Positions 1 to 48,383 of a stretch of DNA of 64,000 nucleotides are shown here, piece by piece. Location: contig CP011806.1 of the NCBI GenBank assembly GCA_001664505.1, forward strand, positions 4,705,579 to 4,769,578, read 5' to 3'. Source of the stretch: Acidobacteria bacterium Mor1. GTDB taxonomy: Bacteria; Acidobacteriota; Polarisedimenticolia; Polarisedimenticolales; Polarisedimenticolaceae. Both the position numbers and the translations under genes were made by a program. The notes beneath the pieces are model-generated. The model had not been told where the DNA came from and ran no database searches. It saw nothing but the letters and a program-made list of their open reading frames with translations. The stretch's first letter is position 1. Every line of letters starts with the position of its first letter.

Positions 1-75
1 CGGCTATTCCGAGGGTAGCCTGGGGCAGGGGAACCCCGGCGAGCGGCCGGCCCCGGCGGAAGCACCGGGGGCGTG

Positions 76-690
76 CTACCTGCCGCAGCGGCTGGGGGGC
101 AGCTGTCCGTGAGGGTGACTCGATCGGCGAGCTGACGAGCGTTTCTGCCGAAGCCAGACGAGCCCCGCACCGGTCAGCGCCGCGAGGGTGATCGGAAGCG
201 GCCGGTCCAGTGAGGCCAATGGTGCGGCCAGGGCCGCTCCGCCTACCGCGCCGAGCAGCATCGGTACCACGCAGCAACGGAACAGCCCCGCGGCCGCTCC
301 TGCTCCCAGGCACCGCGCCAGGAGATCGGGTCCCGAGGAGGCCGAGGCCGGTGGCTCTCCTATCCCGAGCGCGTGCAGTACGGCCCGTGGGTCGGCGCCA
401 TGTACTTCGAGACGCAGGTTCTCACGGGTCGAGCCTGGTCGTCGCTCGAAGCGGATTCCGCTACAGCAGTCCGCCTCTAGTGCGACCAGTCGGTCGATGC
501 GTTCCGCGAGTCCCGGCGAAGGTCTGAACTCCCAGGCGATACCGTCAGCAAGGAGCTCGCCGGAGACCACGTGGCGCATGATCTCCGTCCGCACCCATGC
601 GAGCCGTTCGGCGAGTGCATCGCTGGTGAGGGTGCAGATCGCCACAGGGTCCAGCCGCCCGGCGTTTGTAGTGGCTTCGCTTCGGTTCAT
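76..690 (-). CDS. Small membrane protein with CC motif, MerT/MerC-like heavy-metal candidate
   Basis: A 204-residue protein. The ATG at 690 is chosen because AAAGGAG lies just upstream, whereas an upstream in-frame ATG at 726 would start inside the promoter. The N-terminal half is soluble and ends in a DCC motif (C75-C76). The C-terminal half (about 125-180) has two hydrophobic segments, the first opening with a Cys-Cys-Val-Val-Pro motif (C139-C140) like the metal-binding first helix of mercuric transporters. It is transcribed divergently from a MerR-type regulator through a MerR-type promoter, so metal import, efflux or sensing is inferred. The exact family is not recognised. The C-terminal tail is basic and rich in Ser/His. 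Confidence 0.6.
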   Translation of the reverse strand: MNRSEATTNAGRLDPVAICTLTSDALAERLAWVRTEIMRHVVSGELLADGIAWEFRPSPGLAERIDRLVALEADCCSGIRFERRPGSTRENLRLEVHGADPRAVLHALGIGEPPASASSGPDLLARCLGAGAAAGLFRCCVVPMLLGAVGGAALAAPLASLDRPLPITLAALTGAGLVWLRQKRSSARRSSHPHGQLPPSRCGR

Positions 691-32884: not shown

Positions 32885-35782
32885 CTAGAACTCGTAGCCG
32901 AAGCGCAGGCCGTAGGTCCGCGGCATGCTGAAGCTGCCGCGCGGCACCTGTTCCGCGGCGCCACCCCACCACTGCACCACCTCGTCGGTGATGTTGTAGG
33001 TGTAGAGCTCGGCCTTCCAGGCGCCGGTGTACATCGCGACGCCTGCGTGGAACATCGACCAGGCCGCACGACGGTCGTCGGTGTAGCGGATGTCCTGGTC
33101 GAGGATGACGAAGTCCAGGTCGTCGGTGTGGCGGTCGACGTTCCAGATCGTCAGGTAGGAGTCATCTTCCCAGTGGGCGGTGACCCAGGGGACGATGGTC
33201 ACGTTCTTCTGCTCGAAGAAGAACGCGTGGTCGATGGTCATGTGCAGCTTGTAGTTCGGCGATACCGCCAGATCGTTACCCCGCAGGTTGACCCGCAGGC
33301 GATCGTTGGTCGCGTCCACCGAGCTGTTGAAATCGATGCCGAAGTAGGAAATCGGGTCGTAGTCCCACTTGGTGATCCAGTCCTCGGTGATCTCGGTGTC
33401 GAGCCAGGTGACGTAGCCCCGGATGCGGCCGCCGCGCCACGGCGTGGCGTCGTACTCCAGCTCGACGCCCTGGATCTCGGCGCCGGGCACGTTCTGGGTG
33501 AAGTAGGCGATGACCAGCGGGGTGCCGACCCAGCCGAAATCCGGACGGCCGTCTTCGTCGGCGTCGACGGGCAGGCCGTTGAGGTCGAGGATCGGCGCCC
33601 ACTTCTCGGTGTAGGCCAGCGAGCCGACCGAGGCGTACTGCATGTTCTCGTAGTCCGAGAAGAAGTAGGCGCCCCGCAGGTTGAGGTTGTTGTTGAGGAA
33701 GCGCTGCTTGAAGCCGAGCTCCAGGGTGGTCACCACCTCGGGGTCGTAGGAGGTGCGCAGGGTGGTCTCTTCCGCGCTGACGACGAACGGGTTGCCGTTG
33801 GCGTCGATGTCGCCGTCGACGACCGTGCCCTCGAACACGTCGCCGATGCCGCCCGCCTTGAAGCCGGTGGCCAGGTACGCGTAGAACAGCGTGTCGGCGT
33901 CGGCGTCGTAATCGATCCCGATCCGCCAGTCGCTGTTGCTCCAGGAGCCCCGGTTGTCGTTCTGGTTGAAGTCCGGGTAGATCAGCGGATCGGCGAAGAA
34001 GTCGATCGGCAGGGTGTTCAGCGTCTCCCGGTCGAAGCCCATCTGGCCGCCGTTGACCGCCGACGCGGCGATGTCGTTGGCCGCGCACTCGTTGGTCACG
34101 TTGCAGATGTAGGACCGGCCGCCGATGTCCTGCTTGGTCTCGTCGCTGTAGCGGTAGCCCAGGGTCATGTGGTGCCGGGGGCTCAGCTTGATCGTGCCCT
34201 GGGCGAAGGCCGCCCCGGCCGTGGTCGAACGGTTCGGCTGGACGAACAACGCCTTCTCGTCGATGGCGTTGTCGAAGAAGCCGATGGTGCTGGTCTTCTC
34301 GTGGAAGTAGTTGATGCCGGCGATCCAGTCGAACTTCTGGTTGCCGTAGGACTGCAGCTGAACCTCGCCGGAGTAGGACTGGGAGCCGGTACCGGGCATG
34401 AAGAACAGCGCCTGGTCCCATGCGTTGAGGCTCAGCTCCATGTCCTGGGCGGACTCGCGATCCTGATCTTCGGCGCCGGCCAGGGCAACCAGATGCAGCT
34501 TGTCGTTGATGTCCCAGTCGAAGCGGGTCCGCAGGTACATGATGTCGAGGAACAGCCGCCCCGGGACGTTGACGACCGCCTGGTAGGTGTCGTCCTCGGG
34601 GAACAGGTTGGAGCAGTCGTTGGTGCCGATGACGATCGGGTTGCCGGCGTCATCCAGCGCCAGCTGGTTGTCCTCGGTCAGCTCGTAAACCGGGCGGCCC
34701 CGCAGTTTTTCGCAGTTGACCAGGTCGACGCCGCCGGCGCTGTCGGTCTGGAAATGCTGCATGCTGACGTGCAGGGACATGTCGTCCCGCTTGGGTTGCC
34801 ACAGGCCGCTGACGCGGTAGGCCCACTCCTTGGCGTTCATGTAGAAGTCGTCGTTGTCGGCGCGCACGAGGCCGAAGATCGACGCGCCGAGATCGTCGGC
34901 CCACCAGTTGGAGTGCTGGGTACGGGCGTAACACTCGGGGCTGGTGCAATCGTCGAACGAGCCGGGCGCGATCTCCGGAGCGCCGGCGACCTTGTCGCTG
35001 ATGAAGCGCTGGTCGTACTGGTTCGGATCCCAGTAGCCGGTGATGAACGAATCCCGTTCGTGGTAGCGGCCGGCGAAGCGGAACGCCCAGGTATCGGAGA
35101 CCGGCTTGTTGACCATCATCTGCAGCTCCGGCGCGTTGAAGTTGCCGTACTGCACGTTGATCTTCGATTCGAAACCGGTGAACTTCGGCTTGGCGGAGAT
35201 GATGTTGATGCTGCCGACGGTGGAGTTGCGGCCGAACAGCGTGCCCTGGGGCCCGCGCAGCACTTCGACCCGCTCGTTGTCGAACATCAGTCCGAGCATG
35301 CCCTGCATCCGCGGCGAGTAGATGCCGTCGAGGTGAACGCCCACCGCCGGGTCGCCGAGCTCGGTTTCGTTGGTGGAACGGACGCCGCGTAGCGAGATGA
35401 TCGGGGTCGACTGCCCGTTCTTGGTCGCGATGTCCATGTTGGGGACCATCTGCGCCAGGTCGGTGACGTTCTGGACTCCCTCCCGGTCCATCGTCTCCTG
35501 GTCGATGACGGTGACGGCGACCGGCGTCTTCATCAGGTCGGTCTCGACGCGGGTCGCCGTGACCGTGATGGACTCGGTATGACCTTCCCGGCGGGGCTCG
35601 TCGTCCTTGGCGTCCTTCTTGGCCTTGCCCTTTTTGCCCTCGTCCTTCTTGGACTCGGTCGCCTCGGATGCCGGCTTGGCCCCCTCGGAACCCCCCTCCG
35701 GCTCCTGAGCCTGTAGCCCCCCGGCCGCCGAGATCATCAGCGCCCCAAGGCAAATGAAATTAAGCAGTGCCCGGACTGCCAT
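32885..35782 (-). CDS. TonB-dependent outer-membrane receptor
   Basis: A 965-residue receptor. A signal peptide ends at LQAQ (about residue 26), followed by a Lys-rich linker (45-60) and the TonB-box-like SITVTATR (71-78). The plug domain shows KTPVAVTVIDQETMDREGVQNVTDLAQMVPNM and the conserved RVEVLRGPQGTLFGRNSTVGSINIIS. The 22-strand beta-barrel (about 220-965) ends in FGYEF, with a terminal aromatic residue. It lacks the SusC-type N-terminal domain and there is no SusD gene nearby, so this is a Proteobacteria-style glucan uptake locus. It is the first leftward gene from the LacI-type control region and should import beta-glucan oligosaccharides. Confidence 0.95.
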   Translation of the reverse strand: MAVRALLNFICLGALMISAAGGLQAQEPEGGSEGAKPASEATESKKDEGKKGKAKKDAKDDEPRREGHTESITVTATRVETDLMKTPVAVTVIDQETMDREGVQNVTDLAQMVPNMDIATKNGQSTPIISLRGVRSTNETELGDPAVGVHLDGIYSPRMQGMLGLMFDNERVEVLRGPQGTLFGRNSTVGSINIISAKPKFTGFESKINVQYGNFNAPELQMMVNKPVSDTWAFRFAGRYHERDSFITGYWDPNQYDQRFISDKVAGAPEIAPGSFDDCTSPECYARTQHSNWWADDLGASIFGLVRADNDDFYMNAKEWAYRVSGLWQPKRDDMSLHVSMQHFQTDSAGGVDLVNCEKLRGRPVYELTEDNQLALDDAGNPIVIGTNDCSNLFPEDDTYQAVVNVPGRLFLDIMYLRTRFDWDINDKLHLVALAGAEDQDRESAQDMELSLNAWDQALFFMPGTGSQSYSGEVQLQSYGNQKFDWIAGINYFHEKTSTIGFFDNAIDEKALFVQPNRSTTAGAAFAQGTIKLSPRHHMTLGYRYSDETKQDIGGRSYICNVTNECAANDIAASAVNGGQMGFDRETLNTLPIDFFADPLIYPDFNQNDNRGSWSNSDWRIGIDYDADADTLFYAYLATGFKAGGIGDVFEGTVVDGDIDANGNPFVVSAEETTLRTSYDPEVVTTLELGFKQRFLNNNLNLRGAYFFSDYENMQYASVGSLAYTEKWAPILDLNGLPVDADEDGRPDFGWVGTPLVIAYFTQNVPGAEIQGVELEYDATPWRGGRIRGYVTWLDTEITEDWITKWDYDPISYFGIDFNSSVDATNDRLRVNLRGNDLAVSPNYKLHMTIDHAFFFEQKNVTIVPWVTAHWEDDSYLTIWNVDRHTDDLDFVILDQDIRYTDDRRAAWSMFHAGVAMYTGAWKAELYTYNITDEVVQWWGGAAEQVPRGSFSMPRTYGLRFGYEF

Positions 35783-35896
35783 CGCCGCTCCCTCCCTGTA
35801 TCTATGCCCGTTTTCCCGGATCTTTCGAAGCTCCCGGCCCTATGGCCCAGCGGCAACTTCGAAGAAGCGGGTTATACCCCCGGATTCGCGTCCATG

Positions 35897-35926
35897 AAGC
35901 TACGCAACGATTGACAGCGCTGTCAA
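35897..35926 (-). promoter_or_regulatory. Leftward promoter for the TonB receptor gene
   Basis: TTGACA (35926-35921) is a perfect -35 and is embedded in operator O1. The best -10 is TAGCTT (35902-35897) at 18-bp spacing, with GTAGCT at 17 bp as an alternative. It lies about 115 bp upstream of the receptor ATG. The rest of the 304-bp gap (35783-36086) holds the second operator, the rightward promoter and otherwise unremarkable sequence. Confidence 0.6.
35911..35926. promoter_or_regulatory. LacI-family operator O1
   Basis: Perfect 16-bp palindrome TTGACAGCGCTGTCAA with a central CG, typical of LacI/GalR-family sites. It covers the -35 box of the leftward promoter. Confidence 0.85.
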
Positions 35927-35933
35927 TAAGAAA

Positions 35934-35949
35934 TTGACAGCGCTGTCAT
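35934..35949. promoter_or_regulatory. LacI-family operator O2
   Basis: TTGACAGCGCTGTCAT shares its 15-bp core with O1 and is palindromic over 35935-35948. The two operator centres are 23 bp apart. It covers the -35 box of the rightward promoter. Confidence 0.85.
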
Positions 35950-35962
35950 AACTCCGTATATA
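35934..35962 (+). promoter_or_regulatory. Rightward promoter for the LacI-type regulator gene
   Basis: TTGACA (35934-35939), a 17-bp spacer and TATATA (35957-35962): almost consensus sigma-70 elements. Because -35 is inside operator O2, the regulator should repress its own gene. Confidence 0.8.
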
Positions 35963-36086
35963 CCGTGGGACCTCGGGGGGATTCCGACCTTCACGCGCAG
36001 TTCACCATCCCCGGTTGCAAGAGTGTAACGCTGGCGTAGCACTTCAGGAGTAACGGGGCCTAAACCCCCACTTGGAGCCGACTTAG

Positions 36087-37130
36087 ATGCTGAGGCGTCC
36101 CACGATCGACGATGTTGCCGGGCTCGCTGGAGTCTCGATCAAGACCGTTTCGCGGGTCTTCAACCGCGCGCCCAACGTGCGCCGGGAAACGCGTGAAAAG
36201 GTCTTCGCGGCAGCCGAGACGCTCCACTATCAGCCGAATCTTTCCGCCCGGCAGCTCGCCAGCAACCGCACGTTCCTGGTGGGCCTGGTCTACGACGACC
36301 CGGATCCGGAAACGACCAACGACTACGTGACGGCGATCCAGTCCGGCTCGCTGCTGGCCTGCCGCGACTACGGCTACCACCTGCTGATCAACCCGGTCAG
36401 CGTCAGTTCGCCCAAGCTGATCGACGAGTTGACGGCGCTCAATCGCCAGGTCGACGGCCTGATCGTGCTGCAGCCGCTGTCCGACGTGCGGGCGGTCAAC
36501 CAGTTCATCACCGAGAACGACGTCGCCTGTGTGCGGCTGTCCCAACGGCCGCTCAGCGGCTACGCCTCGATCTCCGTGGCGGACGTCGAGGCCGCCGACG
36601 AGATGACCGAGCATCTGCTCAGCCTCGGTCATCGCCGTATCGGCTTCATCATGGGCCACCCGGAGCACGGTCAGAGTCACGACCGGATGGCCGGCTACCG
36701 GCGGGCCCTGGAGCGCAACGGCGTTCCCTTCGATCCCAAGCTGGTTGCCCAGGGGCTGTTCGACTACGACTCCGGCTACGCGTGCGCCCGGCGCCTGCTG
36801 TCCCAGGGAGATCTGCCGACGGCGATCTTCGCCAGCAACGATCCGATGGCCATGGGGGTCCTGTCCGCGGCACGGGAGATGGAGTTCGACGTGCCGGGGA
36901 AGCTCTCGGTGGCCGGTTTCGATGATTCGCCGCTGGCCCGCCACGCCTACCCGTCATTGACCACCGTGCGTCAGCCGATCGCGTCGATCGCGCGGTTGGC
37001 CACCGAGGAGCTGATGCAGCGGCTCCAGAACGGCGGGTCGGGGGATGCCAATCACTGCCTCAAGGCGGAGGTCATTCTCCGCGCGTCGACGGCTGCGCCG
37101 TCGCCGCAGGCAGGTCACGCAAGTTCATGA
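36087..37130 (+). CDS. LacI-family transcriptional regulator of the glucan locus
   Basis: A 347-residue repressor. The N-terminal helix-turn-helix (PTIDDVAGLAGVSIKTVSRVFN, about 5-26) and hinge helix (PNLSARQLASNRT) are canonical. The periplasmic-binding-like effector domain shows LVGLVYDDPD, VDGLIVLQP, GHRRIGFIMGHPEHGQSHDRMAGYRRAL, AIFASNDPMAMGVL and SVAGFDDSPLARHAYPSLTTVRQP. GGAG precedes the ATG. The two palindromes upstream are the obvious targets. The effector is probably a beta-glucan oligosaccharide or glucose derivative. Only 44 bp separate it from the following glycoside hydrolase gene, so the two may be cotranscribed. Confidence 0.93.
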   Translation: MLRRPTIDDVAGLAGVSIKTVSRVFNRAPNVRRETREKVFAAAETLHYQPNLSARQLASNRTFLVGLVYDDPDPETTNDYVTAIQSGSLLACRDYGYHLLINPVSVSSPKLIDELTALNRQVDGLIVLQPLSDVRAVNQFITENDVACVRLSQRPLSGYASISVADVEAADEMTEHLLSLGHRRIGFIMGHPEHGQSHDRMAGYRRALERNGVPFDPKLVAQGLFDYDSGYACARRLLSQGDLPTAIFASNDPMAMGVLSAAREMEFDVPGKLSVAGFDDSPLARHAYPSLTTVRQPIASIARLATEELMQRLQNGGSGDANHCLKAEVILRASTAAPSPQAGHASS

Positions 37131-37174
37131 AGATTGATCGAGTCAAGATTTTTTCGCGCAGGGAGGGAGACAAG

Positions 37175-39112
37175 ATGATCCGACGGAGCGGTCTAGCAGG
37201 GATGGTGATCCTTGCGATGGCGCTTGCGACCCCGGTCGCCGCCGACACGTTCTACGCGTACACCCAGGGCGGTATTCCGTCCGGGGCAGACATTTTCACC
37301 TGGTGCGATACGCCGCCTTGCGACGTGTTCGAGCCGGTGGTTTGCGACAACCCCGAGGGCGGCAACTCTCTTCGGATGAACACCAACGTCTGGGGTGGCT
37401 TCGGTGTCTTCCTGCTGGGCGACCTCGCCGATCTGTCCGATTACGACGACGGTGAGTTGCGCTTCTGGGTCAAGAGCACCAACGAACTCAAGATCGAGTT
37501 CCAGTGCCGGCCCGCTCTCGCCGATGTGACCTACACCACGTTCCTCAGCCAGACCAACTGGGACGGCACCGGAGACTGGCAGGAAATCCAGATTCCGATC
37601 GCCGACTTCTTCGCGCCGAACCCGGTCGATCCGGCGTGTCTGGCCAACGTCTACGCCCCGATCATGAGCACCATCGAGAACCTGCCGTTCTTCAACTCGT
37701 TCCAGATCGACTACGCGCGCTGGGTCGAGCCGAACACCCCGTCCGGCGCTTCCAGCGTTTCGGTTCAGGGCCGGCAGTTCATGGTCGACGGCGAGCCCTT
37801 CGTGGTCAATGCCATGGCCTATGCGCCGATCGGTATCGGTGAGAACTGGCAGGCCGGCTGGGCCGACCGCGCCGATCGCTACAACGTCGACTTCCCGCTG
37901 ATGAAAGAGGCCGGCGCCAACGTGGTGCGGCTCTACGCGCCGATCGTGTCCGAGGCGATGCTCGACGCCGCCTGGGCCAACGGCCTGTACGTGATTCCGA
38001 CCTTCGGCGTCGATTCGATCCAGCTCGAGTGCCCCGAGGGCAAGGCCTACGTCGAGGACCGGTTCGTCGAGATGGTCAACGACTGGAAGGACCACCCGGC
38101 GATCCTGGCCTGGATCATCGGTAACGAGGTCAACGTCAACCTGGGCGGTGCCGACATCTGCAACGACTGGTACCCGACCCTCGAGGCGATGGCTGCTGCC
38201 GGCCACGCTGCCGAAGGGGCGGCGTTCCACCCGATGGGTACCGCCATCGCCGACGTCTCTTCGCTGGGCGACGCCTGTATCGCCGGCTGCAGTGACGACA
38301 CCGCGATGCCCAGCGTCGACTTCTGGGGCGCCCAGATCTACCGCGGCTGCTCCTTCGGTTCCGCGTTCAACGACTACGCCGGCAAGGCCGACTGCGACCG
38401 GCCGCTGCTGCTCACCGAGTTCGGTGCCGACGCCTACGACGGCGTCTCGGGTTCCGAGGACCAGCTCGGCCAGGACAGCTGCTTCGACACCCTGCTGGCC
38501 CAGGCCGATGCCAACCTCGCCGTGCGCACCGCCGGCGCCGTCAGTACCGGTCACACGATCTTCGAGTGGAGCGACGAGTGGTGGAAGGCCGAGTGCGACC
38601 CGGGTACCTCCTGGTTCGCCCACGACACCTGCACCAGCTTCACCAACACCGGCTTCCCCGACCCGAACATCAACGAAGAGTGGTGGGGGCTGGTCGCGCT
38701 GGATTCCGGCGACCCCGGCGCGCGCAACTCGCGCACGGCTCTCGGTTCGGTCAGCGAGTCGTGGAACGTCGGCGAAGCCTGCGCCTTCGGCTTCGACAGC
38801 TTCAACCCGGGAACCGGTGAGGCGTCGCTCTCCTTCGATGTCGGCTCCGGCTCGTCGGACCACGTGCTGTACTACGGCCCGCTGGGCGACGTGTCGACCT
38901 ACGGCTACTCCGGCGAAGTCGCCGGCCTGGGCGCCGACGGTTCCAGCGACGTGACGCTGCCCTCCGGCTCCCTGTTCATGATGGTCGTCCCCAAGAGCAA
39001 CGGCGCCGAGGGTTGCTACGGCCTCGACTCCGACGGCACCGAGCGTCCGGCGTCTCCTGCGGCGAGCGTCGCCCAGTCGGCGACCCGCGCCTGTGTCTGC
39101 AACGCACCGTAA
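37175..39112 (+). CDS. Secreted clan GH-A glycoside hydrolase with N-terminal sandwich and shared C-terminal module
   Basis: A 645-residue enzyme; ATG 37175 follows GGGAGGGAG and the signal peptide ends at VAA (residue 23). Residues 25-185 form a jelly-roll module (LSDYDDGELRFWVKS, DWQEIQIPIADFF). Residues 200-560 are a TIM barrel: GEPFVVNAMAYAP, AILAWIIGNEVN with E318 as acid/base, and PLLLTEFGADAYDG with E415 as nucleophile. The last 100 residues include HVLYYGPLGDVSTYG and YGLDSDGTERP, a module resembling the tails of two other exported proteins here. Endo- or exo-beta-1,3-glucanase action is inferred from the locus. A strong terminator follows 6 bp after the stop. Confidence 0.82.
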   Translation: MIRRSGLAGMVILAMALATPVAADTFYAYTQGGIPSGADIFTWCDTPPCDVFEPVVCDNPEGGNSLRMNTNVWGGFGVFLLGDLADLSDYDDGELRFWVKSTNELKIEFQCRPALADVTYTTFLSQTNWDGTGDWQEIQIPIADFFAPNPVDPACLANVYAPIMSTIENLPFFNSFQIDYARWVEPNTPSGASSVSVQGRQFMVDGEPFVVNAMAYAPIGIGENWQAGWADRADRYNVDFPLMKEAGANVVRLYAPIVSEAMLDAAWANGLYVIPTFGVDSIQLECPEGKAYVEDRFVEMVNDWKDHPAILAWIIGNEVNVNLGGADICNDWYPTLEAMAAAGHAAEGAAFHPMGTAIADVSSLGDACIAGCSDDTAMPSVDFWGAQIYRGCSFGSAFNDYAGKADCDRPLLLTEFGADAYDGVSGSEDQLGQDSCFDTLLAQADANLAVRTAGAVSTGHTIFEWSDEWWKAECDPGTSWFAHDTCTSFTNTGFPDPNINEEWWGLVALDSGDPGARNSRTALGSVSESWNVGEACAFGFDSFNPGTGEASLSFDVGSGSSDHVLYYGPLGDVSTYGYSGEVAGLGADGSSDVTLPSGSLFMMVVPKSNGAEGCYGLDSDGTERPASPAASVAQSATRACVCNAP

Positions 39113-39117
39113 TCGGC

Positions 39118-39143
39118 AGGGGCGGCTTCGGCCGCCCCTTTTT
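39118..39143 (+). terminator. Intrinsic terminator with TTCG tetraloop
   Basis: GGGGCGGC (39119-39126), loop TTCG, GCCGCCCC (39131-39138), then TTTTT. It directly follows the stop codon of the GH-A gene and should separate it from the next gene. Confidence 0.92.
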
Positions 39144-39171
39144 GATTTGTTTCGTGAGATTTGAACATAAA
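39142..39171 (+). promoter_or_regulatory. Putative promoter for the 378-residue binding-protein gene
   Basis: TTGATT (39142-39147) starts within the T tract of the preceding terminator. CATAAA (39166-39171) lies at 18-bp spacing, 35 bp before the ATG. The patch is AT-rich compared with its surroundings. Confidence 0.45.
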
Positions 39172-39206
39172 CACCGATGGCTTTCCCCCTAAGTGAGGTT
39201 AGAGAG

Positions 39207-40343
39207 ATGAAGCGGATTACTACGATTGTTGCCATGGCGCTGCTGTGCCTGGCGCCCACGGTGGCCTTCGCCCAGCTGAGCTCCTACAGCCAGGACTTCG
39301 AAGGCCTCGACCAGACCAACCCGGACGCCCTGAACCAGGACGGCTGGCTGATCTTCGCCAACGTGTTCAACGCCGACGGCAGCTATGCCTACGGCTACGG
39401 CGTCTTCCCGGCTCCCAACGGCGGCAACGGCTTCAGCGCGATCATCCCCGGACCCGGCGACCCGAACGTCGGCGGTCCCGACCAGGGTGAGCAGCAGCTC
39501 AGCATCTACAGCGATTACAACAACGCCGACCACGGTATCGGCCGGGTGATCGAGGCCAACGTGTTCCAGGAGCAGGTCGTCGGTGCCGCTGACGTCGGTA
39601 CCCGCTGGACCTTCTCCTTCGACGCGACCCGCGGCAACATCGAAGGCGCCACCACCGCTCGCGCCTGGTTCAAGACCCTCGATCCGAACGCCGGCTTCGC
39701 CCTGACCAACTTCATCTGGGTCGACATGACCGACGTTCCGACCACCTGGGACCGCTACTCGGTCTCCATCGACATCGATGCCGGCCTCGTCGGCCAGATC
39801 CTGCAGTTCGGCTTCCTGAACAACGCCACCAACTACGAAGGCTCCGCCGTCTACTACGACAACATCGAGTTCGCTCGTGCGGTCAGCGTCGACATCAAGC
39901 CCGGCGCCTGCCCGAACCCGGTCAACCGCTGGACCAAGGGTGTCCTCCCGGTTGCGGTCCTCGGCACCGACGATCTGGACGTCTACGACCTGGATCCGGC
40001 CTCGCTGAACCTCAACGGCGGCCACGCGGTCCGCTGGAGCTACGAGGATGTCGCCACTCCGTTCGGCGGCGACCTCTGCGGCTGCACCGAGCAGGAAGGT
40101 GACGGCTACATGGACCTGGTGCTCTACATCCCGGTTCCGAACATCGTCGACGCCATGGGCTACCCCCAGTGCGGCGATCAGCAGATGTCCCTGGGCGGTT
40201 CGCTGGTCGACGGCACGCTGGTGCGCGGTGCGGACTGCATCGAGTGGCGCGGCGGCTGCAAGCAGGCCCCGGGCGGACCGAAGCTGGAAGCCACCGTCGG
40301 CGGCTCCACCTCCGGTAGCGGCACGAGCCTGAGCCTCAAGTAG
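39207..40343 (+). CDS. Secreted carbohydrate-binding protein candidate
   Basis: A 378-residue exported protein; signal peptide ends at AFA (about residue 22). Residues 25-225 form a jelly-roll (YSQDFEGLDQTNPDALNQDGWLIFANVF..., then WDRYSVSIDIDAGLVGQILQFGFLNNATNYEGSAVYYDNIEF), like carbohydrate-binding modules. Residues 230-345 form a separate conserved unit starting VDIKPGACPNPVNRWTKGVLPVAVLGTDDLDV and ending with a DGYMDLVLYI strand and a Cys pair. No catalytic motif is seen. Codons are strongly biased to C-ending forms, more than in neighbours, suggesting high expression. It has its own terminators on both sides and sits between two glucanase genes, so a glucan-binding or capture role is inferred. 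Confidence 0.65.
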   Translation: MKRITTIVAMALLCLAPTVAFAQLSSYSQDFEGLDQTNPDALNQDGWLIFANVFNADGSYAYGYGVFPAPNGGNGFSAIIPGPGDPNVGGPDQGEQQLSIYSDYNNADHGIGRVIEANVFQEQVVGAADVGTRWTFSFDATRGNIEGATTARAWFKTLDPNAGFALTNFIWVDMTDVPTTWDRYSVSIDIDAGLVGQILQFGFLNNATNYEGSAVYYDNIEFARAVSVDIKPGACPNPVNRWTKGVLPVAVLGTDDLDVYDLDPASLNLNGGHAVRWSYEDVATPFGGDLCGCTEQEGDGYMDLVLYIPVPNIVDAMGYPQCGDQQMSLGGSLVDGTLVRGADCIEWRGGCKQAPGGPKLEATVGGSTSGSGTSLSLK

Positions 40344-40371
40344 GTTCCGGTCTCACGCACTTGTTCGATAA

Positions 40372-40409
40372 GCGCCGCGGGCGGCATTCGCTGCCCGCGG
40401 CGCATCTTT
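40372..40409 (+). terminator. Intrinsic terminator after the binding-protein gene
   Basis: GCGCCGCGGGC (40372-40382) pairs perfectly with GCCCGCGGCGC (40393-40403), followed by ATCTTT. The stem is long but the T tract is short. Confidence 0.75.
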
Positions 40410-40483
40410 AGCGGCCCGCTCGGTACGTCCCGGGCCAAACGATCCCTCCGACGCGCCCTCGCGCCCACGAGTGAGTTCACCTG

Positions 40484-42298
<1,815 letters not shown>

Positions 42299-42394
42299 GA
42301 CGATCGGGCCTCCGGCCCGGCCCGATCCGAGAACAGGCGTAAGCGGTAGACCTGATCGGCGGGTAGAATGACCCCAGGGGCACCCGGGGTAGAC

Positions 42395-42868
42395 ATGTCT
42401 CGTCTTTTGGTTGCGGTCTCACTGGCGCTCTTCATCTCCCCGCTGTCGTGGGCTGCGTCCGGCGCCTCACCCGGTGGGTCTCCTGCTCAGGTGGTGGAGG
42501 CCTATCACCGGGCATTCGTCTCGGAGAAGGCCGATGCCGCGCGTCTTCTGATCGGCTCCCAGCTCTGGATGAGCGGCGGAGCCGGTTCCGCCGAGGCTTC
42601 CGACTGGGAGGCCCACATGTTCCTCCGCGGGGAGGAGATCGACCAGTGGCTCGGCTTCATGATGAAGGAGGCGGGTCCCTTCGTGAACGAGGTCGAGGTG
42701 CTCTCGACCCACGAGCGCGCCCAGGCGGCGCTGGTGGTCACCCGGGAGACCGGACGCAACAAGTTCCGGGAGTGGTCGGGGGAGGTGGTCGTCTGGCAGC
42801 TCGGCCAGGTCGACGGTTCGTGGAAGATACTCGGCTTCTTCCTGTCCGACGCCCGCAATCCGGAGTGA
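42395..42868 (+). CDS. Exported NTF2/SnoaL-like protein
   Basis: A 157-residue exported protein. ATG 42395 is favoured because the signal peptide (MSRLLVAVSLALFISPLSWA) begins there; an ATG nine codons upstream (42368) is possible. The mature part follows the NTF2-like cone pattern: PAQVVEAYHRAFVSEKADAARLLIG at the N-terminal helix, then VEVLSTHERAQAALVVTRET and VVVWQLGQVDGSWKILGFFLSD as the closing strands. No catalytic residues can be named. Such proteins are often small binding or chaperone-like periplasmic proteins. It is convergent with a long leftward gene, separated by a strong hairpin. Confidence 0.65.
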   Translation: MSRLLVAVSLALFISPLSWAASGASPGGSPAQVVEAYHRAFVSEKADAARLLIGSQLWMSGGAGSAEASDWEAHMFLRGEEIDQWLGFMMKEAGPFVNEVEVLSTHERAQAALVVTRETGRNKFREWSGEVVVWQLGQVDGSWKILGFFLSDARNPE

Positions 42869-42893
42869 GCGACTCGTCGGCGACCGGGCCGCC

Positions 42894-42922
42894 AAAAAAA
42901 CGCCCGGACCGAGGTCCGGGCG
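42894..42922 (-). terminator. Intrinsic terminator of the 1225-residue protein gene
   Basis: CGCCCGGAC / GTCCGGGCG stem (42901-42909 and 42914-42922) followed, in leftward transcripts, by seven T residues (complement of 42894-42900). It lies 22 bp beyond the stop of the leftward gene. The stem could also act on the rightward gene. Confidence 0.9.
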
Positions 42923-42944
42923 TCTCCCAGGCGTCGTGCGCCGC

Positions 42945-45900
42945 TCATGGGCAGATCGGACTACGCTCCACTCCGGAACTATCGAGCCCCCAGCTCCCGC
43001 CGGCCGGTTGGGTGGAGCGGATCAGGTAGAACAGGGTCGGCGGCGGGGTTGCCGGATCGTTCCAGCAGGTGGCCGTCGTCAGGTTCGAGACGCAGTCGGC
43101 GTCGAACGCCGGGCTGCTGGAGCGAAGCACCTCGTACTCGGTCGCTCCGCTCTGCGCGTCCCAGCAGATGTCGCCGTTCCGGAACAGGGTGATCGGCCCG
43201 GAGATCTCATCGACGGCGCCGGCTCCGACCTCGCCGGGGCATTGATTGTCGATTCCGTCGTTGATCTCGGGAGCGCCGGGAAATACCGAGCCGTTCTGGT
43301 CGTTACAGTCGAGCAGGGTGCCCGGGGTGCACGCTCCGCCGGTGAAGGCGCCGTCGCCGTCTCCGTCGATGCAGGCGCTCATGGTGACCCACTCCAGCCC
43401 TTCGGTGCTGTCGCCGAAGAAATCATCGGGCAGCAGCTCCGTGCCCTGGAGTACCGGCGTCTGCTCGATCTCGGCAAGACCGGCGAACTGGTACCAGGTG
43501 TAGGCATCGCCGTTCTCGCCGGCCGCCACGGCACTGAACGGGCCGGCGGCCGTGGGTACGAGGCTCTGCACGTCGGAGGTGATCGTGCGGATCGCGCCGG
43601 AAGGAGTGTCCACTTCATAGAGGCCGAACGGAGCGCTGAAGTTCCCGTCGGTCACGATCCAGTCCCCGTCGGCATCGACGCTCAGGGCGCGAGAACTCGC
43701 GAGAGCGCCGCCGGTGATCTCGACGTAGGCCGAGGGGTTGGCCGGGTCCATGCGGAACAGCCGGTTGTTGCTGCTGCGCAGCGCCAGGAAGCCGCCCGGT
43801 TCGACGGCGACCTCGACGACGAGGCCGATGTCCTGCACCGTCTCGTCGTAGATCGTGGTGATGGCTCCGGTTGCCGGATCGTAGCGCCGAATGCGCGCCA
43901 GGTTGCTGAACAACTCCGACGCACCGCCGACGACAATCGCCGTGCCGTCCAGTGGATCGGTGTCGATATCCTCGGGGCTGAACCCGAGCTGCGACTGCCA
44001 ATCCAGCGGAACCCCATGGATCGCCATGGTGTTGAGGTTGATCCTGAACGTAGGTAGGCCGACGACCCACAGGTCGCCGTTGTCTGCGTAGCCCAGGTTC
44101 GAAACGAACTCATCGGTGAAGCAGACGAAGTCGTGGGTGTCGGTATCGATACCCGGCTGGAACGAGAAGACCCGGCCGAACTGATTGAGCCCGACCAGGT
44201 GGGGCATCGGCACGTCGGGCACGTTCATCAGGCCGACGCTGTCGAACAGGGTGCAGGACAGGCCGTCGTTGGCGCTGCCGTTGATTCCGCCCTGGCAGGG
44301 GGCCGTGTCGGCCCGCGCCCGGAAGGTGATGACTACCTCCTCACCGGGGGCAAGGGAACCGGACCAATTCACCTCGCCGCCGCCCGAGGGATCCCAGGAG
44401 GCGCCGGGAGGGACCGGGGGAACGAACGGGGGATCCCCGATCGGGGTGTAGCCGCTGGGAATACGCGCCTGGGCGCTGGCTCCCGCAAGCGTGTTGGGCT
44501 GAGGGTTGCGCACCCGAAGGGCGAAATCGACGGTCTCGCCGATCCGGGTCGCCTGGACTTCGCTCTCGTTGAGCGCGGTCTCCAGGACGGCGACCGGCGG
44601 CAGGCTGACCGCCTCGAGTTCGACCTCGATGGCTCGACGGACGGGCAGCGCCGAGGGCGCGACGACCGACAGCTCGTCACCGCAGAAGTGCGTGAGCGCC
44701 AGCCGGCCGTTGTTCAGCGTCACGTCATCCTGGTCGACGCAGGCATCGATCAGGGTGGTGAACACGATCTGCGTGGTTCCTGAAGGGGCGAGGTCGCCGT
44801 CCCAGCTCCAGCTTGTGTTCGAGAACTGGCTGATGGTCCCCGTCCCCGGGTCGAGCACCGCTTCGAAGGTCGCTCCGTCGCCGGGCTGCAGGAACAGCTG
44901 CAGGTTGCGTCGGTCGGCGTTCTCGGTGTTGGTCAAGGTGATGGTGTGGGTGATCCGGTCGCCGCCTTCGGCGGGGAGTCCGTTGTCGTCGACGGAATCG
45001 ACCTGCATCGTGATCGGAGCCGTGGAAACTGCGTTGATGCTGGTGACCACGGTGTTGGAGGAGAAGGTCAACGCCTCCAACGGGAGCAACTCGGCCCGGT
45101 TGACGACGTTGCCTCCGGCGGTCGAGCAGTTGACCCGGGCCGTCAAGGTCACCGAGCCCGACGCGCCCGGGGCCAGGTCGCCCAGCTGCCATTCGATCCG
45201 CTTGAAGCTGACCTCCTCGCCGCCGTCGCTGGCCGAGACGAACGAGATGTTGAAGTCGAGGTCGTCCCGCAACACCACGCCGGTGGCGCTCAAGTCTCCG
45301 GTGTTGGAGTAGTCGATGGTGTACGTGATGAGTTCGGCCTCTTCCGCGGCCGCCGGGCCGCTCTTGGTGCCTTCCAGGATCAGTGCCGGGCAGACCGTCG
45401 TGGCGCAGTCGCTTCCAGGACCCTGGGGTACGTCTCCGAAGCTGCTGCAGCTCGACGGTGTGGTGTGGTAGCAGGTCCCGCTCAACTGGCAGCAGGCCTG
45501 GATCGGTTCGGGGCAGTTGATGCTGTCGCAGCTGGTGGTCATCTGGTTGGTGCCCCCCTGGGCGGAACATTCCGCCGGGGTGATCAACGCGCAGGTGCCG
45601 TCGATGCAGCAACTCTCGACGCAGCTCGCCGTCGCGCAGGTGCCCTCGAGAGAGATCCCGCCGAAGGACTCGCATTCCTCGGGAGTCCGTTCTTCGCAGG
45701 ATCCACCGCCGAAACAGCAGGCGCGAGTCGCGAGGAAACAGCTCACGTCGAGCAGGATGCCCGGCTGGTCGGTGCCGTCGACGACGACCACGGCGAAGAA
45801 GCTGCCGGAACTCTCGTCGATCCGTGCGGAGACCGTCGCGTTGCTCTGGCCGGTGTCCTGGTTGGTGATCCCGCTGGTGCCGGCGACCGGGTTCGCGCAG

Positions 45901-46622
45901 AGGTCGACGTGGACGTATTTAGTTGTCGGCGTGTCGGTGCCGTGGATCACCAGCGCCGCGTTGCCGCTGGGTGCGAAGGTCGGCGTGTTGATCCCGTCCC
46001 GGTAGGTCGAGGTGTCGAGGTTGACCTCGTCGCCGACCATGTCCGCCCACAGCACCGGTTGGTTCGCTCCGGTGCCGCTCGGAGCTCCGGCGACGAACAT
46101 GGTCCGGATCACCCCGCCGACCGGATCGAAGAAGCGTGGCTGGATGTTGACCGGTGTGGCGATACAGGCCGCCTGATCGCCGCCGTACGGCACCAGAGAC
46201 TCGGGAGGAGCGCCGGTCGGCGGGGAGACCCGGTACATGTAGATCTCGAGTTGATTCCCGTTGTTGCAGACGGTGGTGAAGCCGTTGATGTTGAAGCGCT
46301 CGACGTAGAGCGCGTCCCGGCTGGGAGAGAGCCGGTACTGCAGGTCCCAACGCCGTACGGCCTGGGTGTCCGGCCGGATCTCCGGCGGCAGGTTGTAGGT
46401 CACCCAGCCCTGTTGGCGGGTGTAGATGTCGACGGTGGTCTCGCCGGGAAGGGGTTGGCGTACGCCGCCCCCGGCGGCCGGGTCGATGAACCAGGTGTCC
46501 CCCTGGACGTAGGGGCCGGTCTGGATCTGCGCCGCTGCCGCAGTCGCCAGGGCAACGCAGGCAACCGCAAGTGCCAGACGCAGGATTCTATGGGAGCGGG
46601 TTCGAGTGTGGGGTGAGCTCAT
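42945..46622 (-). CDS. Giant secreted multidomain protein: Cys-repeats, DUF11 repeats, beta-propeller, MopE-like segment
   Basis: A 1225-residue exported protein (signal peptide ends near AAAA, residue 30). Residues 30-295 form a unique beta-rich domain. Residues 300-411 hold three tandem Cys-rich units (ACCFGGGSCEERTPEECESFGG; SCCIDGTCALITPAECSAQGG; ACCQLSGTCYHTTPSSCSSFG). Residues 415-800 are DUF11-like repeats (ITYTIDYSNTGDLSATGVVLRDDL). Residues 830-1080 resemble beta-propeller blades (DGDWIVTDG, LFRMDPANPSAY). A MopE-like segment follows (DGDGDGAFTGG...DCNDQNGSVFPGAPEINDGIDNQCPG). The C terminus FYLIRSTQPAGGSWGLDSSGVERS is a module resembling those of the divergent M23 peptidase and a glucanase. 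A surface or adhesive role is inferred. Confidence 0.75.
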   Translation of the reverse strand: MSSPHTRTRSHRILRLALAVACVALATAAAAQIQTGPYVQGDTWFIDPAAGGGVRQPLPGETTVDIYTRQQGWVTYNLPPEIRPDTQAVRRWDLQYRLSPSRDALYVERFNINGFTTVCNNGNQLEIYMYRVSPPTGAPPESLVPYGGDQAACIATPVNIQPRFFDPVGGVIRTMFVAGAPSGTGANQPVLWADMVGDEVNLDTSTYRDGINTPTFAPSGNAALVIHGTDTPTTKYVHVDLCANPVAGTSGITNQDTGQSNATVSARIDESSGSFFAVVVVDGTDQPGILLDVSCFLATRACCFGGGSCEERTPEECESFGGISLEGTCATASCVESCCIDGTCALITPAECSAQGGTNQMTTSCDSINCPEPIQACCQLSGTCYHTTPSSCSSFGDVPQGPGSDCATTVCPALILEGTKSGPAAAEEAELITYTIDYSNTGDLSATGVVLRDDLDFNISFVSASDGGEEVSFKRIEWQLGDLAPGASGSVTLTARVNCSTAGGNVVNRAELLPLEALTFSSNTVVTSINAVSTAPITMQVDSVDDNGLPAEGGDRITHTITLTNTENADRRNLQLFLQPGDGATFEAVLDPGTGTISQFSNTSWSWDGDLAPSGTTQIVFTTLIDACVDQDDVTLNNGRLALTHFCGDELSVVAPSALPVRRAIEVELEAVSLPPVAVLETALNESEVQATRIGETVDFALRVRNPQPNTLAGASAQARIPSGYTPIGDPPFVPPVPPGASWDPSGGGEVNWSGSLAPGEEVVITFRARADTAPCQGGINGSANDGLSCTLFDSVGLMNVPDVPMPHLVGLNQFGRVFSFQPGIDTDTHDFVCFTDEFVSNLGYADNGDLWVVGLPTFRINLNTMAIHGVPLDWQSQLGFSPEDIDTDPLDGTAIVVGGASELFSNLARIRRYDPATGAITTIYDETVQDIGLVVEVAVEPGGFLALRSSNNRLFRMDPANPSAYVEITGGALASSRALSVDADGDWIVTDGNFSAPFGLYEVDTPSGAIRTITSDVQSLVPTAAGPFSAVAAGENGDAYTWYQFAGLAEIEQTPVLQGTELLPDDFFGDSTEGLEWVTMSACIDGDGDGAFTGGACTPGTLLDCNDQNGSVFPGAPEINDGIDNQCPGEVGAGAVDEISGPITLFRNGDICWDAQSGATEYEVLRSSSPAFDADCVSNLTTATCWNDPATPPPTLFYLIRSTQPAGGSWGLDSSGVERSPICP

Positions 46623-46784
46623 GGCTGGATATCCCTGAAAGGAAGCCGGGACGACACATCCCGTCCGTGATGGGATATCGAGCTACGGGGCGAGACCCCT
46701 GCACTTCCGCGGAGCCCGGAGCCGGCCCGAGGGCGAAACGTCGGCGATATCTCGGTTTTCGGGCCTGCTTCGGCCGGCTCGGGT

Positions 46785-46813
46785 TTGACTCCGGCAGGGC
46801 TGCCCGGTAGTTT
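46785..46813 (+). promoter_or_regulatory. Putative promoter of the M23 peptidase gene
   Basis: TTGACT (46785-46790), 17-bp spacer, TAGTTT (46808-46813). It lies 49 bp upstream of the ATG in the 240-bp divergent gap 46623-46862, which otherwise shows nothing I can name. Confidence 0.6.
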
Positions 46814-46862
46814 CCCCAGAGGTGGCGGGTATTTCTTGCCCTGGCCTGTGGAGAGTTCCGCG

Positions 46863-48383
46863 ATGCGTTTCCCCCTGGTCCTCGCTCTGTTGACCATGGC
46901 CGTGATTCCCGTGTGGAGTCAGGACACGGCACCCTATCGGGTTCTCCAGGGGGCCGGCCCGGCCGGATTCGGGGGCGGGGAGCTGCCGGCTGCCGAGGTC
47001 GCCGACCACATCACCCCGGAGCAGCGGGCGCGGATCAAGGCGCAGATCGAGTTCAACCGGGAGCGGCTGCGCCGTGAGGGCGTTCTGATGCGCAGCTCGG
47101 TGGCCTCCACGCCGACCTTCGGCTGGCCGCTCAAGCTGGCGCCGGGCCTGGACGACCCCGGCTATCACGGTGTCTCCAACTTCGTCGACCAGGATCCCGC
47201 CTTTCCCGGCGCGTTGCTCGACTACGATTGCCTCGACCGGACCTACGACATCGACGGCTACAACCACGCCGGCATCGATTTCTTCACCTGGCCCTGGGGT
47301 TGGCTGAAGATGGACGAGGAAACCGTCTGGGTCGTGGCCGCCGCGCCGGGACAGATCGTCTACCGCGAGGACGGCAACTTCGATCGCAATTGCGGTTTCG
47401 GCGCCAGCGATTGGAACGCGGTCTACGTCGAGCACGCCGACGGGTCGGTCACCTGGTACGGCCATCTGAAGACCGACTCCCTGACCGAGAAGCAGGTCGG
47501 GGACTTCGTCGAGGAGGGGGAGTACCTGGGTGTCGTCGGCAGTTCCGGCAACTCGACCGGGCCCCACCTGCACATGGAGACCTACGACTCCGGGGGGAAT
47601 CTGATCGAGCCCTACGAAGGTCCGTGCAACGGCTTCAACAGCACCACCTGGTGGAAGGATCAGCGCCCCTACTACGACACTGCTCTCAACAGGGTGACCA
47701 CCGGCTATGCGCCGCCGGTGATTCCGGTCTGCCCCGATCCGGAGCTGCCTCACGCCTCGGTGACCTTTGCCGCAGGCCCCGAGGTCTACTTCACCATGTA
47801 CTATCGGGACCAACTTCAGGGGCAGGTCTCGGACTTCACCCTGCGCCGTCCCGACGGCAGCCTCTATTCCAACTGGAACCACTCGAGCCCCGAACCCCAC
47901 TACACCGGTTCCTACTGGTACTGGTGGTTCGATATCCCCGTAGGTGAGCAGCAGGGGACCTGGAGCTTCACCGCCGAGTTCGAGGGGCAGACCATCGTCC
48001 GGGAGTTCTCGATCGGCGGCGGTACCGCGGCACTCAGCGGCCGGGTGCCCCAGTACCGGGTGCACGGCACCCAGCTGACGGTCACCCGGGGCGAGGGCTC
48101 CACCGTGGACCTGGCCTGGGGCGCCTCCTGTGCCGAGGGGGACAGCGACTTCGTGGTCTACGAAGGTGCCGTAGGTGACTTCACCAGCCACGCCCCGGTG
48201 CTTTGCAGCACCGCGGGAGCCCCGGTGGCGACGGTCACTCCGGCCGGAGGCTCGCGCTATTTCCTGATCGCGCCGGGGAACGGCGCGGTGGAGGGGAGCC
48301 GCGGGCGGGACAGTTCCGGCGTGGCTCGCCCCGCAGGCGCGGGGTCCTGTTTCCCGGAGAACGCTGCGCCGAGCTGCCCGTAG
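46863..48383 (+). CDS. Secreted M23 (lysostaphin-type) metallopeptidase
   Basis: A 506-residue exported protein; ATG 46863 follows GGAGAG and the signal peptide ends at VWS (residue 19). Residues 130-245 form the M23 domain: H135 and D139 in NHAGIDF, H201 in WYGHL, and H235/H237 in GPHLHME make up the zinc site and catalytic histidine. Residues 285-400 form an Ig-like sandwich (FTLRRPDGSLYSNWN, WSFTAEFEGQTIVREF). The C-terminal 100 residues form a beta module (YEGAVGDFTSHAPVLCST, SRYFLIAP, GRDSSGVARP). M23 enzymes cut peptidoglycan cross-bridges or Gly-rich proteins. The whole divergent gene opposite encodes another protein with a related tail. Confidence 0.9.
   Translation: MRFPLVLALLTMAVIPVWSQDTAPYRVLQGAGPAGFGGGELPAAEVADHITPEQRARIKAQIEFNRERLRREGVLMRSSVASTPTFGWPLKLAPGLDDPGYHGVSNFVDQDPAFPGALLDYDCLDRTYDIDGYNHAGIDFFTWPWGWLKMDEETVWVVAAAPGQIVYREDGNFDRNCGFGASDWNAVYVEHADGSVTWYGHLKTDSLTEKQVGDFVEEGEYLGVVGSSGNSTGPHLHMETYDSGGNLIEPYEGPCNGFNSTTWWKDQRPYYDTALNRVTTGYAPPVIPVCPDPELPHASVTFAAGPEVYFTMYYRDQLQGQVSDFTLRRPDGSLYSNWNHSSPEPHYTGSYWYWWFDIPVGEQQGTWSFTAEFEGQTIVREFSIGGGTAALSGRVPQYRVHGTQLTVTRGEGSTVDLAWGASCAEGDSDFVVYEGAVGDFTSHAPVLCSTAGAPVATVTPAGGSRYFLIAPGNGAVEGSRGRDSSGVARPAGAGSCFPENAAPSCP

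What the first reader, a model, noticed from the sequence alone, without database searches (positions are those of the whole stretch)
37175..48383. Related C-terminal module on three unrelated exported proteins
The glucanase (37175-39112), the giant DUF11/MopE protein (42945-46622) and the M23 peptidase (46863-48383) all end with a beta module having a YYGPLGDVSTYG / YEGAVGDFTSHA block, a hydrophobic strand (FMMVVP, FYLIRS, YFLIAP) and a terminal G-x-D-S-[SD]-G-[VT]-x-R-[PS] motif, then a Cys-containing tail. The first block is clear only in the glucanase and peptidase. Repeated use on otherwise unrelated secreted proteins points to a sorting, anchoring or processing signal not previously named, as far as I know.
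Basis: partly seen in the sequence, partly recalled or inferred. Interest (0 to 1): 0.62.

Follow-up and report, generated by a model that had tools for sequence, protein, structure and literature searches.

The report
Widespread C-terminal Fn3-like export module
Almost 80 otherwise unrelated exported proteins of this acidobacterium end in the same small disulfide-stapled, fibronectin-III-like domain, which no domain library lists and which marks a whole class of Acidobacteriota; it probably works as a shared terminal docking or targeting tag, but that function is not proven.

Summary
A profile of the three tails finds 90 places in the host's single 5.985-Mb contig. About 85 are real copies: 77 end a protein (69 have a Cys in the last three residues, typically Cys-Pro) and eight lie elsewhere. 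A fourth carrier ends at window 1-109. The module is a ~95-residue fibronectin-III-fold domain (AlphaFold pLDDT 90.5; sequence and fold matches are Fn3). It has an invariant Cys pair, and a second pair that co-varies across the family (36/1/3/31, p=1e-15). No Pfam, NCBIfam or T9SS-CTD model matches it. Passengers are unrelated; 71 of 75 have a recognisable signal peptide. Every sampled genome of the host's class carries it in multiple copies, against 24 of 262 other genomes in the phylum. Named relatives are Acidobacteria.

The sorting/anchoring idea is partly supported. Position, one copy per protein, unrelated passengers and a conserved FG-loop motif favour a shared terminal docking or targeting domain. 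Five proteins instead carry it behind the signal peptide, and internal copies keep the motif, which argues against a signal read only at, or cut from, a free C-terminus. No partner was found. It is an unnamed, lineage-defining Fn3-superfamily family of unproven function.

The parts
38786..39109 (+). C-terminal Fn3-like module of the glucanase (ORF 37127-39112)
   Evidence: profile match 38786-39094, continues to the stop
42948..43199 (-). C-terminal Fn3-like module of the DUF11/MopE protein (ORF 42945-46622)
   Evidence: AlphaFold model of 42948-43271, residues 21-108 mostly confident, Fn3 neighbours
48078..48380 (+). C-terminal Fn3-like module of the M23 peptidase (ORF to 48383)
   Evidence: AlphaFold pLDDT 90.5, Fn3 neighbours
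1..109 (+). last ~36 codons of a fourth module (566-aa open frame, L107:991-2688) that begins upstream of the window and ends ...SCP
   Evidence: one search hit G000:C1:4705370-4705687
37127..38785 (+). passenger 1: exported GH72/GH2-like TIM-barrel glycosidase
   Evidence: Pfam PF03198 3.8e-7 and PF02836 3.6e-5; signal peptide
43200..46622 (-). passenger 2: exported protein with DUF11 repeats and a MopE-type metal-binding motif
   Evidence: Pfam PF01345, PF11617; signal peptide
46863..48077 (+). passenger 3: exported M23 peptidase
   Evidence: Pfam PF01551 8.7e-16; signal peptide

Best explanation
The module is a distinct family of fibronectin-type-III-fold domains. It is stapled by one invariant disulfide (Cys50 just after the C' strand to Cys98 in the tail) and, in about half the copies, a second one (Cys25 to the terminal Cys). 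It is placed once per protein, normally at the very C-terminus, on many unrelated Sec-exported proteins. Shown: the family, predicted fold, position, exported passengers, covarying cysteines and lineage distribution. Inferred: the disulfide pairing itself; that passengers cross the inner membrane by Sec and the module folds and oxidises in the periplasm; and that its conserved FG-loop/Arg segment (EGSYGxDSxGxER) is recognised by one common partner, such as an outer-membrane or surface receptor or a terminal export machine. It would then act as a terminal docking or targeting tag, like a dockerin or a T9SS CTD in logic. Because conserved copies also sit behind the signal peptide, recognition would be of the folded domain, not of a free or cleaved C-terminus.
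For: 90 profile hits in the genome; 77 C-terminal, 8 real copies elsewhere, never two real copies in one ORF of this genome. Unrelated passengers: 70 Pfam families among 65 passengers; passengers fall into 29 similarity groups whereas all but one of the tails form a single group. Signal peptides in 71/75 (simple rule). Fold: pLDDT 90.5, Foldseek and sequence-profile neighbours Fn3. FG segment nearly as conserved as core strands (1.59 bits against 1.88, 1.83 and 2.13 for strands B, C and F), unlike an idle spacer loop. Cys covariation 36/1/3/31, p=1.4e-15. Position kept in relatives: 22/23 in another lineage of the phylum, 25/30 in another family of the class. 35/35 sampled genomes of the class are multi-copy.
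Against: No partner, receptor or processing enzyme was identified. Copies behind the signal peptide (three DUF1800 proteins, two others) and three internal copies show that a C-terminal position is not obligatory. Other exported proteins in the same locus (39177-40343 and the GH16 enzyme) lack the module. Some relatives have two hits in one ORF. The conserved FG segment could be structural, since Gly and Arg may be needed to close an Fn3 domain that lacks a regular G strand.
Confidence: 0.5

Rival explanations
1. Terminal stabilising cap: a disulfide-locked Fn3-like domain that protects the C-terminus of exported proteins from proteases and spreads by domain shuffling, with no specific partner.
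For: Fn3 fold and distant Fn3 homology; covarying cysteines that would tie down the C-terminal tail; also found near the N-terminus or internally in a minority.
Against: About 77 copies at one end, one per protein, with an FG segment conserved across ~80 paralogues; ordinary Fn3 domains of the same genome are mostly in one protein with ten copies.
Confidence: 0.3
2. Outer-membrane sorting signal read and cut at the C-terminus, as in the type IX system: export requires the module, which a sortase then removes.
For: Same logic as T9SS CTDs: C-terminal Ig-like beta-sandwich on many unrelated Sec-exported proteins (PMC4804311).
Against: No TIGR04183 match in any of 71 modules or in the genome, and no SprA_N match, although that search rang in no control genome either and is weak. 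Predicted disulfides link the tail into the domain. N-terminal and internal copies keep the motif. The nearest folds are Fn3, not T9SS CTDs.
Confidence: 0.1
3. Adhesion or substrate-binding domain that ties each enzyme to a shared outside target (polysaccharide, exopolymer, surface of other cells) rather than to the producer.
For: Many passengers are hydrolases or propeller and beta-helix proteins; Fn3-like domains accompany secreted glycosidases and chitinases (1k85, 5g56).
Against: Also on propeller, protease, MopE/TSP3-repeat and many uncharacterised proteins with no evident common substrate; position is almost always terminal.
Confidence: 0.1

Closest known systems
Fibronectin type III superfamily (Pfam PF00041 and relatives; e.g. 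chitinase A1 Fn3 1k85, CtXyl5A Fn3 5g56)
   Same: beta-sandwich with Fn3-like strands; conserved W in strand B and Y in strand C; profile and Foldseek neighbours are Fn3
   Different: PF00041 matches none of the 71 modules; covarying cysteine pairs and a conserved GxDSxGxER FG segment with a Cys tail; one copy per protein at the terminus instead of tandem repeats
T9SS C-terminal domain (TIGR04183 Por_Secre_tail; RgpB CTD, PMC4804311)
   Same: small C-terminal Ig-like sandwich on many unrelated Sec-exported proteins per genome
   Different: no sequence match; Cys-rich; also occurs N-terminally; different phylum; nearest folds are Fn3
Dockerin modules of cellulosomes (comparison from general knowledge)
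   Same: one docking module per enzyme, usually C-terminal, on many unrelated secreted enzymes
   Different: dockerins are calcium-binding EF-hand-like; no cohesin or scaffold was sought or found here
PEP-CTERM / MYXO-CTERM / LPXTG sorting tails (comparison from general knowledge)
   Same: C-terminal tag on exported proteins with a short conserved motif
   Different: no C-terminal hydrophobic helix or basic cluster here; a folded ~95-residue domain instead

Membership tests
Fibronectin type III superfamily | Fn3 beta-sandwich fold | tested here: met
   AlphaFold pLDDT 90.5; nearly all top Foldseek neighbours are Fn3 domains, prob about 1.0 but TM only 0.4-0.6 and E>=2e-3; profile hits 1k85 and 1tdq
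Fibronectin type III superfamily | match to the Pfam Fn3 family model | tested here: not met
   0 of 71 modules at E<=0.1; PF00041 hits in the genome are elsewhere
T9SS CTD (TIGR04183) | sequence match to the Por_Secre_tail model | tested here: not met
T9SS CTD (TIGR04183) | T9SS translocon in the genome | tested here: inconclusive
   no SprA_N match, but that search rang in no control genome either
T9SS CTD (TIGR04183) | module removed after export | not testable with these tools
   needs proteomics
Short CTERM sorting tails (PEP-CTERM type) | C-terminal motif, hydrophobic helix and basic residues | tested here: not met
   tails end C-P or similar after a Cys-containing segment, no hydrophobic helix; no CTERM model matched
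Dockerin | duplicated calcium-binding loops, helical fold | tested here: not met
   no Pfam dockerin match among the modules; beta fold

The most novel reading that the evidence does not exclude
A class of Acidobacteriota uses one unnamed, disulfide-locked Fn3-fold domain as the common address tag for tens to about 80 exported proteins per genome, recognised by a dedicated and still unknown surface receptor or outer-membrane export machine: an independent counterpart of the type IX CTD system.
Probability: 0.25. Interest if true: 0.85.

Novelty: new variant of a known kind. Interest (0 to 1): 0.58.

Why it matters
A domain that forms the end of about 80 proteins in one genome and marks an entire class of environmental bacteria has no model in Pfam or NCBIfam, so these proteins look unrelated in annotation. 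Naming it groups a large part of the exported proteome of this class. If it is a docking or targeting tag, its partner would be a new surface-display or export component in Acidobacteriota; the literature searches made here found no such system described.

Tried and rejected
Strict C-terminal sorting or processing signal: weakened by conserved copies behind the signal peptide (DUF1800 and others) and by internal copies that keep the motif. T9SS CTD membership: no match. Ordinary Pfam Fn3: no match. SprA_N search uninformative. Secretin search: four secretin domains, one closest to PilQ and three closest to GspD, so a T2SS-like route may exist, but nothing links it to the module. A diverse 71-member alignment was too variable for the genome-contig scan; a narrower one gave 23 loci, labelled Acidobacteria except those of one MAG labelled only 'bacterium'. 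No relatives in viral contigs or plasmids. Literature searches found no description of this module.

Full report
Observation. The three ORFs and their tails are as described. Pairwise, glucanase and M23 tails match at E=8e-9 and glucanase and DUF11/MopE tails at E=1e-4, while the M23/MopE pair is not significant alone. A profile made only from these three tails finds 90 places in the host's single 5,985,000-base contig; the best non-training copies score E=5e-27 to 1e-18. I fetched all places and reconstructed the open frames. Seventy-seven copies end within 30 residues of the stop codon, all with a Cys in the last 12 residues and 69 with a Cys in the last three; 'CP' is the commonest ending. 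Eight real copies are not C-terminal. Of the remaining five hits, I judge two to be ordinary Fn3-type domains and three to be spurious. No ORF of this genome carries two real copies. One further carrier ends at window position 109, its body lying outside the window.

Anatomy. The family consensus is LsW..c.GA.dY.vyrG.L....C...P..g..FYLV....g..EGSYG.DS.G.ER.....C.......CP. AlphaFold with 71 own-genome sequences gives a beta-sandwich at mean pLDDT 90.5. Its PDB neighbours are almost all Fn3 domains, with moderate TM-scores of 0.4-0.6 and no E below 0.001, and a profile search of PDB sequences also returns Fn3 domains first (1k85 E=8e-4, tenascin-R E=1e-3). The DUF11/MopE tail, predicted separately, is mostly confident from residue 21 on and also resembles Fn3. 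No Pfam or NCBIfam family matches more than one of 71 members, and those single hits are weak. Conservation is high in strands B, C and F and almost as high in the FG segment EGSYGxDSxGxER. Cys50 and Cys98 are nearly invariant. Cys25 is present together with an additional tail Cys in 36 sequences, both are absent in 31, and only 4 break the rule (Fisher p=1.4e-15, not corrected for relatedness); this predicts Cys50-Cys98 and Cys25-Cys107 disulfides. About 13 copies instead carry an extra, apparently unpaired cysteine in the FG loop.

Passengers. Sixty-five passengers hit 70 Pfam families, none in more than five proteins: S8, M10, M23 and trypsin-like peptidases, esterases, sortilin/BNR and Kelch propellers, beta-helices, MopE and TSP3 repeats. 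By BLAST the passengers fall into 29 groups (the two largest probably chained by repeats), whereas all but one of the tails form a single group. A simple rule finds a signal peptide in 71 of 75; two of the four failures are frames cut by the fetched stretch.

Exceptions. Three DUF1800 proteins carry the module directly after the signal peptide, and DUF1800 follows it. Two long proteins also carry it near the mature N-terminus; from the sequence as read they look RHS-like, but I did not scan them. A second family of the class shows the same DUF1800 arrangement (L226) and one of the RHS-like arrangements (L224), judged by the matching sequence that follows the module. Three more copies are internal. 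The motif is kept in these, so it is a feature of the domain rather than of a free C-terminus. This is the main evidence against a C-terminal sorting or cleavage signal in the strict sense.

Distribution. In 60 relatives every member of the class had hits, from 7 to at least 81, the number scored being capped at 81. In a broader draw, 35 of 35 genomes of the class (own included) against 24 of 262 other genomes of the phylum had a match at E<=1e-6, about half of the latter with only one or two copies. Position is kept: 22 of 23 hits in a genome outside the class and 25 of the 30 best hits in another family of the class are within 40 residues of the C-terminus. Named relatives from genome contigs are Acidobacteria MAGs, including Ca. 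Polarisedimenticola svalbardensis. The host may be the Mor1 acidobacterium mentioned in PMC8528874; this is my inference from genome size and kinship and was not tested. No relatives appear in plasmids or viral contigs.

Function. Two points favour a specific role: one copy per protein at one end on unrelated exported proteins, and an FG segment conserved almost like core strands across ~80 paralogues. I therefore think the likeliest role is a folded terminal docking or targeting tag with a common partner (about 50%). A partner-less stabilising cap is the main rival (about 30%). T9SS CTD membership is not met by sequence, though a similar logic is not excluded. The genome has four secretin domains, three closest to GspD, so a T2SS-like route for folded proteins may exist, but nothing here ties it to the module.

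Limits. The later profile (A2) was built from own-genome hits, so counts with it are less independent than those with the three-tail profile. Signal peptides were called by a home-made rule. Position counts in relatives favour the best-scoring copies. No experiment or partner supports any function.

Noticed in passing
window 32885-42298: Looks like a beta-glucan utilisation locus: TonB-type receptor (32885-35782, -), LacI-type regulator (36087-37130), GH72/GH2-like glycosidase with the module (37127-39112), an unassigned exported protein (39177-40343) and a GH16 enzyme without the module (40484-42298).
   Followed up: partly
L040:1753-3762, L058:2773-4719, L058:8993-10981: Three DUF1800 proteins carry the same module at the mature N-terminus, directly after the signal peptide; the arrangement seems to recur in another family of the class (L226).
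   Followed up: partly
L087 and L088 (G000:C1 5706580 and 4503437): Two paralogous BNR-like proteins, 71% identical overall, have 110 identical C-terminal residues, as expected after recent gene conversion of the module.
   Followed up: partly
A2 members with a Cys in the FG loop (e.g. L052:4630-4953, L074:3409-3732): About 13 copies have three cysteines, one apparently unpaired in the conserved FG loop; it could form an intermolecular bond.
   Followed up: no
G000:C1 3056575-3061773: A 2935-aa open frame with ten ordinary Fn3 domains, the only large Fn3 array found in the genome.
   Followed up: no
L213 (G037:C1 3148262-3148600): Module followed by 241 residues of unlikely-looking sequence, possibly a lost stop codon.
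   Followed up: no
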